This document shows positions 54,478-62,867 of a stretch of 64,000 bases of DNA, in pieces. Source of the stretch: Alphaproteobacteria bacterium (lineage in GTDB: Bacteria > Pseudomonadota > Alphaproteobacteria > Micavibrionales > Micavibrionaceae); NCBI GenBank assembly GCA_030427385.1, contig JAUHWR010000001.1, positions 1,608,042 to 1,672,041 of the forward strand, written 5' to 3'. A program made the translations under genes and the position numbers. The notes beneath the pieces were generated by a model that searched no databases, was not told the DNA's origin, and saw nothing but the letters and a program-made list of their open reading frames with translations. The stretch's first letter is position 1; every line of letters begins with the position of its first letter.

Positions 54478-55086
54478 TTATTCTTCTTTTTTAAAATTTA
54501 AAATATTTTCTAAAACAACATATTTTGCTTTTTGGCCTTTAACAAAAAAAACTGCGTTTGAACGTTTAATACAGCGCTCATGCCCAAAATTTATGTCAGC
54601 CAAAAAATCTATTTTCTGATTATTTACAGAAAGTTTTAATAAGGTAGAGTTGAATTTTCCCTCGTAGAAACGTATGCCATAACTGTTATATACAAAGCTT
54701 TCAACCAATGTTTTATCTTTAATAAAAATATAAGCACCCAAAAAAGTAGGCCATAATATAAACGGTAAATTATTTTCTACTACTTCCTGATAATCCCCAT
54801 ATTTTTCTAATGCCTCAATTTGATTGTAAAAAAATTCATCAGAAAGGTAACGATGAACAGCGCAAACTGCATCCCATTCTGTCGTAACAACGTCTCTGAC
54901 AAGTACATAATTATATGGTGTTTTATTAAATTTCTTCTCAATTATTTCAATAAATTCCTTCTCTTTTAAAGGAATGTAGAACATAGAATACAAAACGGAT
55001 CCTACAATAAATAAACCAACCGTCAGAAAAATAGATTTTAGGATTTTTTCTATCATTTTTTCTCTTGTTTTAATTGGCACAAGCAT
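54478..55086 (-). CDS. Hypothetical membrane-anchored protein
   Basis: 202 aa with N-terminal hydrophobic segment. Confidence 0.6.
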   Translation of the reverse strand: MLVPIKTREKMIEKILKSIFLTVGLFIVGSVLYSMFYIPLKEKEFIEIIEKKFNKTPYNYVLVRDVVTTEWDAVCAVHRYLSDEFFYNQIEALEKYGDYQEVVENNLPFILWPTFLGAYIFIKDKTLVESFVYNSYGIRFYEGKFNSTLLKLSVNNQKIDFLADINFGHERCIKRSNAVFFVKGQKAKYVVLENILNFKKEE

Positions 55087-55460: not shown

Positions 55461-55477
55461 TGGAGAGTGAAGGGATT
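55461..55477. repeat. Distal attachment site (decayed copy of tRNA-Gly 3' end)
   Basis: TGGAGAGTGAAGGGATT versus TGGAGCGAGTGAAGGGATT at 62793-62811: 2-nt deletion, otherwise identical; shared exact core GAGTGAAGGGATT. Confidence 0.72.
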
Positions 55478-55611: not shown

Positions 55612-56985
55612 CTAGGTTAGTAACCAGTTTTTAATAGCTAAAATTTCAGCATGGCTTTCTGGCATATCTTCCAATAAGGAATCTATTCTTGAAATAACAT
55701 CTTTTATAGTACGACCTGTTGAAACACCATCAAGACCATGCCGCCTATTATTTACCCACTTCCTAAGTTTGTCTCTAATATCACTTTCAAGAGCCATTTG
55801 GTTTTCTAGAAATACAAGCCTCTGGGCTATTTCCTTGTACCGCTCATCCTTAAATAAGGTGATCGTTTCTATTTTTTTATCAATATCTCCTGAGTGAAAT
55901 TCTTTCATTAATTTTTGATCCGATATGTTTGGAAACCCTTCAAATATTCGTTCTTCAAGAACTTTTTTCTTCTCTTCCCTTGCGAAACGAAGTTTTAAGG
56001 CACAGGCAACATTCTTATGAAACTGACCTGCATTATTTACTCGATCTGCTCTTTTCTGAATTTCGGAAAGCGCTAATTTGAATTTATGTTCTGGATTTCT
56101 TAAGTGCTCTAATTTAATTATAGCAGGCATTTTATTAGTATAGATTATTCTAATCGCTTTCTTAGAGCTATTCATTACCTTAACTATTTCATTTACAGAT
56201 AAATCAAAATACTCTTCTGGATCATATGTTAAATCAAAAACTGAAATAAGTGAAGAAACAGTATCTGGAGCACAACATCCAACAATCGCTCGCACCGAAG
56301 AGCTTCCACCAAAGTATTCTATAAGACAATTAACCTTATTGTTGTTAATCATCTGATTAACCTTTGACTTATCAACTAAAGGAATAAGTGTTTCCCAAAT
56401 ATCAGGAGCACGCTTCCTTACTAAATTAGCCATATATATGGTAGCCTGAACATCGCCTAAAGCATCATGGGCACTTTCATGCGCGAAACCATTTGCAGGT
56501 GCCAATACATCTAGCTTTAACGTTGGCATACCTCTGTTATTTTTTGGGATATTAATCACGTCTGGCCTCAATGTAGATGCTGCCTGTATGAATCTTAAAA
56601 CATCACCACGTTGATTACCATTTGTATTAGTTAAAAATGTAGGGTGTAATGTTTGGTAGAAAGCTTGACGAAGCAATAGTTCATCAAAATTTATTGTATT
56701 GTATCCAAGGAAAACAGCTGGTGACCAATCGTTTAAGACCTTTACTATTTTCTGCATAAACTGGTAATGAGAAACTAAGTGTGGATCATTGAGCATATCG
56801 GGGCTAATACGAGTAACTAAGAGAGCTTCGGGGGCTGGTATTATGTGAGGCTGTATCCTGCATCTTATTTCAATACGATCCAATTCAATAAACTCAGCAT
56901 CAGTCAAAATTGCTGCAAATTGTAAAATTTGATCAAACGTAGTGTCTAGGCCAGTTGTTTCTGTATCATAAAATATATAATTCAT
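55612..56985 (-). CDS. Exonuclease I (SbcB)-like DEDDh 3'-5' exonuclease
   Basis: 457 aa; FYDTETTGLD (DxE), LGYNTINFDELLLRQAFY, LRPDVINIPKNNRGMPTLKLDVLAPANGFAHESAHDALGDVQATIYMANLV. Collinear with E. coli SbcB, including the C-terminal region. Confidence 0.9.
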   Translation of the reverse strand: MNYIFYDTETTGLDTTFDQILQFAAILTDAEFIELDRIEIRCRIQPHIIPAPEALLVTRISPDMLNDPHLVSHYQFMQKIVKVLNDWSPAVFLGYNTINFDELLLRQAFYQTLHPTFLTNTNGNQRGDVLRFIQAASTLRPDVINIPKNNRGMPTLKLDVLAPANGFAHESAHDALGDVQATIYMANLVRKRAPDIWETLIPLVDKSKVNQMINNNKVNCLIEYFGGSSSVRAIVGCCAPDTVSSLISVFDLTYDPEEYFDLSVNEIVKVMNSSKKAIRIIYTNKMPAIIKLEHLRNPEHKFKLALSEIQKRADRVNNAGQFHKNVACALKLRFAREEKKKVLEERIFEGFPNISDQKLMKEFHSGDIDKKIETITLFKDERYKEIAQRLVFLENQMALESDIRDKLRKWVNNRRHGLDGVSTGRTIKDVISRIDSLLEDMPESHAEILAIKNWLLT

Positions 56986-57019: not shown

Positions 57020-58603
57020 TTAATAATAAGATATGTAATTGGGAGGCTCAACTTTCTCTAAACCGAATGTGAAATAATATTTTCTTGCTGCCCGCCACCC
57101 TCTAACAAAACTAGGCAAGCCTGCCTCTGGCTCACTTTTACCCCTCCAAGCTTTCATATCAAGCCATGTACCTAATATTAAATGTTCTTGATCTGGCTTT
57201 ATTCCTTGAAGACTATACTTGTTTTTTAAAATAATAGCCCTCTTATGCATCGCACGTTTAATGGAATTTGCAAGCCAACCGTCTAAATCAACAAATTGTT
57301 CGCGTTGTTCTATAAGAGCATAAAAACCCATTAATCCTCGCATTTGCTTTAGTTTTTTCCCCTCGCGTAAATAGAGTTGAATATCTTCTTCATCCAATCC
57401 CCCATATAGGTATTTTCTTATTTCAGTAATAAGCCCTAGCAAATCCCAATCATAGTCAGGGGTAACACCATTTCTTTGCCTAGAGAAACCGTATTTTTTT
57501 GGATAGTGGATTAAATATATGTGAATTAGTCGAGATATTTTGGCTTTAACTCGCTTCATTACGCTTTCTGGGATAGACGTTCCGTCCTTTGAGAAACTAT
57601 ATCCAAGATAATTAAGAGTCTCATAGTTTCTCATTTCTGATTTGTGTTTTGAAATAATTGCAACACCTTCAGATTTTTTTTCATTAATCTTGATACCACT
57701 AGCCTTACAGTGCTCAATAAAACAATTCTCAACTTTTTGTGCATCTTCATAATTAGAACAAACGGCAGTTACATCATCTGCATATCTTACAAATTTACCT
57801 GCGCATCGCTCTAATGATCTATCTAAATTATCACTGGCTAAATTTGCCAACAAAAGTGAAATTGATGAACCTTGAGGAGTACCTATTACACGCCTCTTAA
57901 AATCATTTGCGCTATACTGTATTGGCTCTGCATATTGATGATGTAAAAACTCGCCAAAAACGTAACGTTCATGCGGGGTTAAGCTAAGCATATTTTTATC
58001 AGAGATGCATTTCTTTAGGTAACCTGTAGGAATGCTATCAAAATATTTCTCAAAATCAATTTGAACAGCAAATAATTTATCAGTTGTAATATAATTAGAC
58101 AGCGCCAAAACAGCGTCAAAAATATTCTTATTCGGATGATACGCATAAGAAAATGAAGAAAGGCGCTTTAAATTACGCGCTCTAGATCGCTTCATCATGA
58201 TATTTGCTAGGGCTGCATCAGGTATGGAAAAAGCCATAATACTTCTGTAACCACCAGCAGGCTTAGGGATTAAAAAATTTTGCGCGGGTACAGGTTTATA
58301 GTCTTCAGATAGCACCTTCTGCCATATAGTTTTTGATAGAAAATTTGCGTTTCTTGCACAATGTTTTGGTTCAAAAAGTGGCATTACGGCTTGTCTGGAC
58401 TTGTTTTTAACGGGCTCTCCAGCTTTTAAACCTGTTCTTTTAGAATATTTATTTCTATATTCTTTGTCCTTAGACTCTGACTGCGCTGTTCTTAAAAGAA
58501 TGCGCTTTGATAGTCTCTTGATCTCATTTTTTAAGGCTGTTTGCATAGTTCGACGAGGAGCCTTTAAAGTAAGGGTTTCTGCGTTGCATTTAAAATGTCG
58601 CAT
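57020..58603 (-). CDS. Reverse transcriptase (stand-alone, non-maturase; UG/DRT-like candidate)
   Basis: 527 aa; IPKPAGGYRSIMAFSIPDAALAN, FAVQIDFEKYFDSIP (motif A), RRVIGTPQGSSISLLLANLASDNLD (B), KFVRYADDVTAVCS (C), GIKINEKKSEGVAI (D), LNYLGYSFS (E). Alternative start at 58546 (MQTALKNEIKR). Confidence 0.92.
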   Translation of the reverse strand: MRHFKCNAETLTLKAPRRTMQTALKNEIKRLSKRILLRTAQSESKDKEYRNKYSKRTGLKAGEPVKNKSRQAVMPLFEPKHCARNANFLSKTIWQKVLSEDYKPVPAQNFLIPKPAGGYRSIMAFSIPDAALANIMMKRSRARNLKRLSSFSYAYHPNKNIFDAVLALSNYITTDKLFAVQIDFEKYFDSIPTGYLKKCISDKNMLSLTPHERYVFGEFLHHQYAEPIQYSANDFKRRVIGTPQGSSISLLLANLASDNLDRSLERCAGKFVRYADDVTAVCSNYEDAQKVENCFIEHCKASGIKINEKKSEGVAIISKHKSEMRNYETLNYLGYSFSKDGTSIPESVMKRVKAKISRLIHIYLIHYPKKYGFSRQRNGVTPDYDWDLLGLITEIRKYLYGGLDEEDIQLYLREGKKLKQMRGLMGFYALIEQREQFVDLDGWLANSIKRAMHKRAIILKNKYSLQGIKPDQEHLILGTWLDMKAWRGKSEPEAGLPSFVRGWRAARKYYFTFGLEKVEPPNYISYY

Positions 58604-58688
58604 ACCAGATTAGCATTTCAGCGTCACCGTTCTTAAGGGCTTCCGCCCTTGGTATTTTCGACCCCTCGCCTAAGCTACTACGCTGTAA
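58604..58688 (-). ncRNA. Candidate structured RNA/leader upstream of the RT
   Basis: Minus strand: CAGCGT(58685-58680)/ACGCTG(58624-58619) closing stem; inner AAGGGC-GGAA-GCCCTT hairpin (58650-58635); GGT-cgaaaat-ACC hairpin (58663-58651); CTT/AAG junction stem. Confidence 0.4.
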
Positions 58689-58692
58689 TTCA

Positions 58693-58722
58693 TACTTAAT
58701 CACGCTTCTTTTTTTGTGTCAA
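58693..58722 (-). promoter_or_regulatory. Putative promoter for RT/ncRNA
   Basis: Minus strand TTGACA (58722-58717), 18-nt spacer, TAAGTA (58698-58693). Confidence 0.4.
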
Positions 58723-61410: not shown

Positions 61411-62628
61411 TTAACCTTTCTTTATAAAAGGCAAAACCTGAGAAGTCTGCGATGCGGTGTCCAAATAATCCGACCAATCTTGCATCATAACTTTACGTTC
61501 ATCCAAAAACTGCGCGCGGTCATAAGCGCGCTGCACCATACTTTTAGGAGCATGTGCAAGTTGACGATCAATAACCTCATGGCGATAATCTAGTTTTTCT
61601 TTAATTGTTGTCATAGCCAACGCACGAAAGCCATGCCCTGTCATGCGCCCTTTAAAACCCAATCGCTCTAAGCCTTTTAAAACTGTATTATTGCTCATGT
61701 GTTTGCGTGGCGAATGGTGACCAGGGAATACCCACTCCCACCGCACGTTGCGTGCTTTTAAATCGCTCAAAATTTCAATGGCTTGTGTTGATAATGGCAC
61801 AATGTGATCGTTCCGCATTTTCATACGTTCGGCAGGGATAACCCACTGCGCGTTTTCAAGATCAAATTCTTGCCATTTTGCTTCAATCAGTTCTTTTGTG
61901 CGCACAAAAGTAAGCATCAATAATTTCATAGCTTGCCTTGTATCAAGATGCAAACGCGCATCATTCCGTTCTATTGCGTGCAACAATTCAGGAATTTCTT
62001 TCACATCAAGACAGGCATAATGCTTTTTCTTTACAGGCTGTAAAACCATACCAATTTCGGATGCAGGGTTAAGCATCGCAAGTTCACTTATAATCGCATA
62101 TTTAAAAATTTGATCGCAATATTGTCGCAAGCGGTGGGCGGGTTCAAACGCCCCACGTTTTTGCACCTTCTTTAAGGCATTTATAATCTGTATAGGTTTG
62201 ATATCACTGATTGGTAAAAATCCTATTTCAGAGAATAAATCAATTTCCATTCTATGTATGACTGTCTTTGCATGACGATCCGTCCATTTATGTTTGAAAT
62301 TCTCATGCCATTGGCGTGCCACAACCTCAAACGTATTTTCAAATTTACTTTCTGCGTTCTGTTTTTGAGACTGCTTTTCTTGATTCGGATCAATATTTTG
62401 ATCCAGAAGCTTGCGCGCTTCCGTACACCTTTCTTCGGCTTCTTTCAGTGAAATTTCTGGATATACCCCCAACGCCAATAGCTTTTCTTTGCTATTAAAC
62501 CGATATTTCATACGCCAATACTTACTATTATTAGGCATAATTTGAAGATACAAGCCACGCCCACCCGCTAATTTATAGGGCTTATCACGTGATTTTGCAT
62601 TTTTGCATTCTAGATTTGTAAGACTCAT
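61411..62628 (-). CDS. P4-type tyrosine integrase (DUF4102 N-terminus)
   Basis: MSLTNLECKNAKSRDKPYKLAGGRGLYLQIMPNNSKYWRMKYRF...EKLLALGVYPEISLKEAEERC...TFVRTKELIEAKW...MTGHGFRALAMTTI...QLAHAPKSMVQRAYDRA. Confidence 0.95.
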   Translation of the reverse strand: MSLTNLECKNAKSRDKPYKLAGGRGLYLQIMPNNSKYWRMKYRFNSKEKLLALGVYPEISLKEAEERCTEARKLLDQNIDPNQEKQSQKQNAESKFENTFEVVARQWHENFKHKWTDRHAKTVIHRMEIDLFSEIGFLPISDIKPIQIINALKKVQKRGAFEPAHRLRQYCDQIFKYAIISELAMLNPASEIGMVLQPVKKKHYACLDVKEIPELLHAIERNDARLHLDTRQAMKLLMLTFVRTKELIEAKWQEFDLENAQWVIPAERMKMRNDHIVPLSTQAIEILSDLKARNVRWEWVFPGHHSPRKHMSNNTVLKGLERLGFKGRMTGHGFRALAMTTIKEKLDYRHEVIDRQLAHAPKSMVQRAYDRAQFLDERKVMMQDWSDYLDTASQTSQVLPFIKKG

Positions 62629-62792
62629 TGGGGGTATCAACTCCATACAATTTATTTTATACCCCCGCTTGCACCCCTTTTTGATTTGGATTTGGGGGTA
62701 TAACATCGGATGGCTTTGGACAAAATTGTTTCATAAAAACCCTCTTAACACAAGGCTTTCTGGACTTTACTGGACTGTTTGGGATGCCAAAT

Positions 62793-62867
62793 TGGAGCGA
62801 GTGAAGGGATTCGAACCCTCGACTTCAACCTTGGCAAGGTTGCGCTCTACCCCTGAGCTACACTCGC
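62793..62867 (-). tRNA. tRNA-Gly (GCC), CCA encoded
   Basis: Minus: GCGAGTGTAGCTCAGGGGTAGAGCGCAACCTTGCCAAGGTTGAAGTCGAGGGTTCGAATCCCTTCACTCGCTCCA. Confidence 0.96.

What the first reader, a model, noticed from the sequence alone, without database searches (positions are those of the whole stretch)
58604..58722. Promoter-preceded, highly foldable RNA immediately upstream of the RT
In the 126-nt gap between the recombinase and the RT, a perfect TTGACA -35 with a plausible -10 sits just upstream of a sequence that can form a closed multi-branch fold: CAGCGT/ACGCTG closing stem, CTT/AAG junction stem, AAGGGC-GGAA-GCCCTT hairpin and GGT-cgaaaat-ACC hairpin. The GGAA hairpin lacks a T-tract, so it does not look like a terminator. 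Several RT defence systems use an adjacent ncRNA as template or primer, so this is the natural template candidate.
Basis: partly seen in the sequence, partly recalled or inferred. Interest (0 to 1): 0.78.

Follow-up and report, generated by a model that had tools for sequence, protein, structure and literature searches.

The report
DRT9-like defence RNA before reverse transcriptase
The RNA in front of this bacterial reverse transcriptase is real and conserved in many bacteria: it is a divergent relative of the RNA that serves as template and scaffold in the DRT9 anti-phage system, but its template letters differ from the published ones, so the DNA that such systems make may differ too.

Summary
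The RT is UG28/DRT9-type (PADLOC Drt9 520 bits; about 30% identical to E. coli DRT9). Seventeen homologous leaders, mostly from Alphaproteobacteria, share one fold with strong covariation: 96% of cells paired, 65 double changes against 20.3 ± 3.5 in shuffles. The RT therefore starts at 58546, and the RNA runs about 58687 to 58552. A -35 box TTGA(C) stands 37-40 nt upstream of the SL1 motif in all 19 leaders. The position of the published DRT9 U4 template reads CUUAC-UUUA here and UCU in most relatives, so the 'universal' poly-U tract is not kept; the SL6 hairpin is absent too. Only here, among the loci examined, does an ExoI-family gene follow the RT; it is the only one detected in the genome. 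Verdict: new variant of a known kind (DRT9-like). Its product is untested; poly-dA is most likely here.

The parts
58717..58722 (-). -35 box TTGACA of the ncRNA promoter
   Evidence: TTGA(C) 37-40 nt upstream of the SL1 motif in 19 of 19 leaders; -10 weak (TTAAGT 58699-58694)
58552..58687 (-). DRT9-like ncRNA (about 136 nt); 5' end inferred from the promoter, 3' end taken at the end of helix P1
   Evidence: CM R1: 82 bits, E 3e-24 (the window is in the seed); covariation
58673..58684 (-). SL1 hairpin AGC-GUAGUA-GCU (GGC/GCC in most relatives)
58660..58670 (-). 5' strand of closing helix P1 (GGCGAGGGGUC)
   Evidence: pair probability 0.90-1.00; 99.1% of aligned P1 cells paired
58635..58650 (-). 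SL2 hairpin AAGGGC-GGAA-GCCCUU, the one reader stem that is kept
   Evidence: corresponding family helix has double changes at 6 of 6 pairs
58565..58573 (-). Template loop CUUACUUUA; UUU at 58566-58568 takes the place of U4 in published DRT9
   Evidence: unpaired in the predicted fold; motif in all relatives; canonical counterpart CUUACUUUUA
58552..58562 (-). 3' strand of closing helix P1 (GGCUCCUCGUC), 5 nt before the RT start codon
57020..58546 (-). RT, UG28/DRT9 type, 508 aa; start corrected from 58603 to 58546
55612..56985 (-). ExoI/SbcB-family 3'-5' exonuclease (RTasSbcB), 34 nt after the RT stop codon
   Evidence: PADLOC RTasSbcB 392 bits; ExoI structures as best PDB hits; only PF08411 match in the genome
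58730..59749 (-). Tyrosine recombinase upstream of the ncRNA, probably not part of the system
   Evidence: PF00589; E. coli DRT9 also has an integrase-domain gene upstream, with no significant similarity to this one

Best explanation
The interval is the 5' part of a DRT9-like ncRNA that the neighbouring UG28-type RT binds as scaffold and template. Transcription starts just upstream of SL1 from a conserved promoter (inferred). The RNA folds into SL1 followed by a long closing helix P1 that encloses stem-loops and a single-stranded template loop (supported by covariation). The RT, primed by a tyrosine near its C-terminus, repeatedly copies the short pyrimidine run of the loop into long single-stranded repetitive DNA (inferred from published DRT9). 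In this locus the run is UUU, so poly-dA is the most likely product. The ExoI-family enzyme encoded next to the RT would degrade that DNA in healthy cells, and an infecting phage that blocks or outcompetes it would let the DNA build up and stop the cell (inferred). Here the ncRNA ends almost at the RT start codon, with no terminator between, so it is probably also the leader of the RT transcript.
For: RT identity: Drt9 520 bits, against 735 for E. coli and 513-523 for two other alphaproteobacterial members; the solved DRT9 RT is the best PDB hit at 212 bits. Conserved fold: 96% of cells paired, 16 pairs with double changes, covariation score 0.515 against 0.256 +/- 0.017, none of 500 shuffles as high, at most 57.6% paired when slid. 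Specificity: CM hits at E <= 0.001 in 4 of 266 related genomes, each beside a DRT9-type RT gene found, and one strong hit in the own genome. Promoter: -35 at a near-fixed distance in 19 of 19. Architecture as in canonical DRT9: SL1, then P1, with a CUUAC-pyrimidine loop shortly before the P1 3' strand. C-terminal tyrosines: NYISYY here, NYDYE in E. coli. Literature: an upstream ncRNA with U4 templates tyrosine-primed poly-dA, and loss of sbcB is not tolerated with DRT9 (PMC12483538).
Against: No transcript or product was measured. U4 is U3 here, and deleting one template U abolished defence in SenDRT9. The alphaproteobacterial covariance model does not hit canonical DRT9 ncRNAs, so the link between the two RNA groups rests on architecture, the short motif and RT kinship. 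The close relatives examined have no such exonuclease next to the RT, and four of their genomes lack the family altogether, so the exonuclease is not a general part of the clade.
Confidence: 0.85

Rival explanations
1. The RNA is only a cis-acting leader of the RT mRNA that controls translation or RNA processing, not a template.
For: It abuts the RT start codon (5 nt after P1) with no terminator between, and no clear ribosome-binding site is visible, so the fold could hide the start.
Against: Same position and architecture as DRT9 ncRNAs shown to bind the RT and template DNA (PMC12483538); invariant single-stranded CUKACU loop inside a covarying fold. Both roles can coexist.
Confidence: 0.08
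2. The template is read as a tandem repeat through an A-B-A' pattern, as in DRT10 (UG17): CU-KA-CU is present in all 18 leaders tabulated, and here CUU-A-CUU would give (TAAG)n rather than poly-dA. This shares the RT-ncRNA template model and differs from the best explanation only in the product.
For: CU-KA-CU is invariant while U4 is not; DRT10 uses A/A' of 2-4 nt (PMC12632851).
Against: Canonical DRT9 with U4 also carries CUUACU (L034, L040, L081), and the characterised members make poly-dA, so the repeat may be kept for contacts; the RT matches UG17 with only 86 bits against 520 for Drt9.
Confidence: 0.25
3. It is a retron-type or group II intron-type RNA.
For: The RT domain gives distant hits to group II and retron models.
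Against: All far below their cut-offs (132.7 against 300; 51.5 against 235); no Rfam match to the interval even at E 1; full-length Drt9 match.
Confidence: 0.02

Closest known systems
DRT9 (UG28) of Salmonella enterica and E. coli (PMC12483538, PMC12489045)
   Same: RT family over its full length, upstream ncRNA on the same strand, SL1 followed by a closing helix that encloses stem-loops, CUUAC-pyrimidine loop shortly before the 3' strand of the closing helix, C-terminal tyrosines
   Different: RT only about 30% identical; UUU instead of UUUU (UCU in most relatives); no terminator-like hairpin SL6 between ncRNA and RT; shorter RNA (about 136 against 188 nt); its own ExoI-family gene next door
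DRT10 (UG17, PMC12632851)
   Same: Class 2 UG RT with an ncRNA whose template loop can hold an A-B-A' repeat; some systems have a tyrosine recombinase nearby
   Different: RT scores far lower for UG17; no SLATT gene found here; the DRT10 ncRNA lies upstream of the SLATT gene
DRT3 (PMC13174585)
   Same: An ncRNA loop placed like that of DRT9 with a dinucleotide repeat template (ACACAC), a precedent for the CUCU loops of the relatives
   Different: DRT3 has two RTs and makes double-stranded poly-(dTdG)/(dCdA)

Membership tests
DRT9 (UG28) | RT of the UG28 clade | tested here: met
   Drt9 model 520 bits over residues 19-525; canonical members 632-735, alphaproteobacterial members 513-523
DRT9 (UG28) | Structured ncRNA immediately upstream of the RT | tested here: met
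   Conserved covarying fold, confined to loci beside the RT in the genomes searched
DRT9 (UG28) | Universally conserved poly-U template (U4) | tested here: not met
   UUUA here; UCU in 13, UUU in 4, UAU in 1 of 18 leaders. For this reason it is filed as a DRT9-like variant
DRT9 (UG28) | Terminator-like SL6 between ncRNA core and RT | tested here: not met
   5 nt from P1 to the start codon here, and no such hairpin seen in the listed leaders
DRT9 (UG28) | C-terminal priming tyrosines | tested here: met
   NYISYY at the C-terminus; tyrosines near the C-terminus in the relatives aligned. Presence only; priming was not tested
DRT9 (UG28) | Poly-dA synthesis, hexamer, abortive infection | not testable with these tools
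   needs experiment
DRT10 (UG17) | RT of the UG17 clade with a SLATT gene | tested here: not met
   RT_UG17 86 bits against Drt9 520; none of the neighbouring proteins scanned matched a SLATT family
Known Rfam RNA families | Covariance model match | tested here: not met
   No match up to E 1

The most novel reading that the evidence does not exclude
A branch of DRT9-like systems in Alphaproteobacteria has changed its template: UCU loops (in ACUCU) would drive poly-(dAdG), or CUKA repeats a tetranucleotide polymer, instead of poly-dA. The window represents an early branch with U3, and it carries its own ExoI-type enzyme as a built-in antidote.
Probability: 0.35. Interest if true: 0.75.

Novelty: new variant of a known kind. 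Interest (0 to 1): 0.55.

Why it matters
The published DRT9 work calls the poly-U tract universally conserved and leaves open how many uridines are needed (PMC12483538). This clade offers natural variants with three U, or with UCU, at that place, so the templating rule becomes directly testable. The exonuclease next to the RT, in a genome where no other ExoI was detected, fits the idea that DRT9 needs an ExoI to be tolerated and that the antidote can travel with the system. The RT start is easy to mis-call because the ORF runs into the ncRNA; an annotated E. coli copy seems to carry the same error.

Tried and rejected
A coding extension upstream of 58546 was rejected by frame and stop positions. 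ExoI as a clade-wide partner was rejected: absent near the other RTs and from four of their genomes; related short ExoIs sit in HTH-ImmA/IrrE cassettes, mostly near ThiF genes. The tyrosine recombinase was considered as a part; it shows no significant similarity to the one upstream of E. coli DRT9. Searches of viral contigs with the window RT and with its exonuclease, and of phage records with an alphaproteobacterial RT, gave no relatives. An alignment of four canonical ncRNAs was too poor at the 5' end for a covariance model, so cross-detection was not tested in that direction. A 13-base repeat of the tRNA end at 55465 was checked as a left island border and left undecided.

Full report
What was claimed.

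What the RT is. The RT matches the PADLOC Drt9 (UG28) model with 520 bits over nearly its full length; the solved DRT9 RT (PDB 9NLV and others) is its best PDB match. E. coli DRT9 scores 735 on the same model and two other alphaproteobacterial relatives 513-523. Nineteen loci encoding relatives of 50-56% identity were found in genome contigs; those named to genus are Alphaproteobacteria. In a tree of 20 RTs the window is the first branch of a fully supported clade of 14, well apart from the canonical DRT9 RTs (rooted at the midpoint, and with long branches).

The RNA. The regions upstream of these RTs hold a conserved RNA. A structure-blind alignment of 17 gives a consensus fold: SL1, a long closing helix P1, SL2, two further stem-loops, and an unpaired loop just before the 3' strand of P1. 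On that alignment 96.0% of cells pair, 16 of 27 pairs show changes on both sides, and 65 cells are double changes against 20.3 +/- 3.5 in shuffles, with none of 500 reaching the observed value; sliding the partners leaves at most 57.6% paired. In the window P1 pairs 58660-58670 with 58552-58562 at probability 0.90-1.00.

It pairs 48.7% of cells against 47.4% in shuffles, and three of its four helices have no double change. Only the AAGGGC-GGAA-GCCCTT hairpin lies at a conserved place. The 126-nt gap alone does not fold better than chance (z -0.50).

The start codon. From the loop motif to the RT start the distance modulo 3 is 2 in 11, 1 in 5 and 0 in 2 loci, with in-frame stops in several, so the stretch 58603-58547 is RNA and not protein in the family; the RT most likely starts at 58546. 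The E. coli record annotates its RT from locus position 1581, inside the ncRNA core at 1494-1637.

Promoter. TTGA, in most followed by C, stands 37-40 nt upstream of the SL1 motif in all 19 leaders compared. The window's -10 is weak.

Specificity. The covariance model hits the window (82 bits) and the alphaproteobacterial leaders, but none of the canonical ncRNAs. In the own genome there is one strong match. In 266 related genomes there are four matches at E <= 0.001, each in a genome and contig where the RT search found a DRT9-type RT directly beside it. Rfam has no match.

Template. In published DRT9 the U4 at 123-126 templates poly-dA and is called universally conserved. In L081 (E. coli), L040 and L034 it reads CUUAC-UUUU-A. 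Here it is CUUAC-UUU-A, and in 18 leaders the three bases are UCU in 13, UUU in 4 and UAU in 1; the UAU locus (L015) has an RT reading with stop codons. On the RT tree the middle base changed at least three times (without L036 and L046). CU-KA-CU is invariant in the 18, so an A-B-A' repeat as in DRT10 cannot be excluded, and DRT3 gives a precedent for a dinucleotide template.

Exonuclease. The gene 34 nt after the RT matches RTasSbcB with 392 bits and ExoI structures. It is the only PF08411 match in the genome, and the window's genome is the only one of its family among those listed with a match. Other loci of the clade lack it. Since DRT9 is not tolerated in E. coli without sbcB, a built-in antidote is a plausible role; this is inference.

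Setting. An integrase (61411-62706) lies beside a tRNA-Gly (62793-62867); in the same-genus relative the similarity to the window starts at that tRNA, so the segment looks like an island inserted there. The left border is not settled.

Limits. Nothing here measures transcription, binding or product. The leaders are related, so shuffle counts are not probabilities. Homology to canonical DRT9 ncRNA rests on architecture, motif and RT kinship. Two key DRT papers (Mestre 2022; the Science 2025 DRT9 paper) were not available here, so an earlier description of this clade cannot be excluded.

Noticed in passing
L081:1581-3179: The annotated E. coli DRT9 RT (WP_211092143.1) starts inside the ncRNA core (1494-1637); the start matching relatives is at 1680.
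   Followed up: partly
L012:4874-5007 and L016:4912-5058: Two MAG loci have leaders that seem to lack the 3' half of the ncRNA next to the RT N-terminus, with different junctions; deletion or assembly error. They score only 46-48 bits with the model.
   Followed up: no
L015:5004-6517: The RT reading carries a TGA and a TAG (same genome as L089), so it looks like a pseudogene; its template base is the odd one (UAU).
   Followed up: partly
L082:1996-2693: In E. coli VE-T9 the DRT9 RT is annotated as a short ORF followed by an IS1-like element, apparently interrupted.
   Followed up: no
L074, L075, L076, L077, L078, L079: Relatives of the window exonuclease follow HTH and ImmA/IrrE genes, mostly near ThiF-family genes and in some loci multiubiquitin genes, on alphaproteobacterial plasmids and in a genome of the same order.
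   Followed up: partly
window 55465-55477: 13 bases identical to part of the tRNA-Gly 3' end (62799-62811), a possible left end of the island; similarity does not extend further.
   Followed up: partly
window 54478-55086: ORF of 202 aa with a possible N-terminal membrane segment and no Pfam, PADLOC or NCBIfam match, in the low G+C stretch beyond the exonuclease.
   Followed up: no
L036:4001-6131: A more distant Drt9-type RT (484 bits) on a Thioclava plasmid, followed by a SLATT gene; upstream it has CCUUACUUUGAGG but a different-looking arrangement.
   Followed up: no
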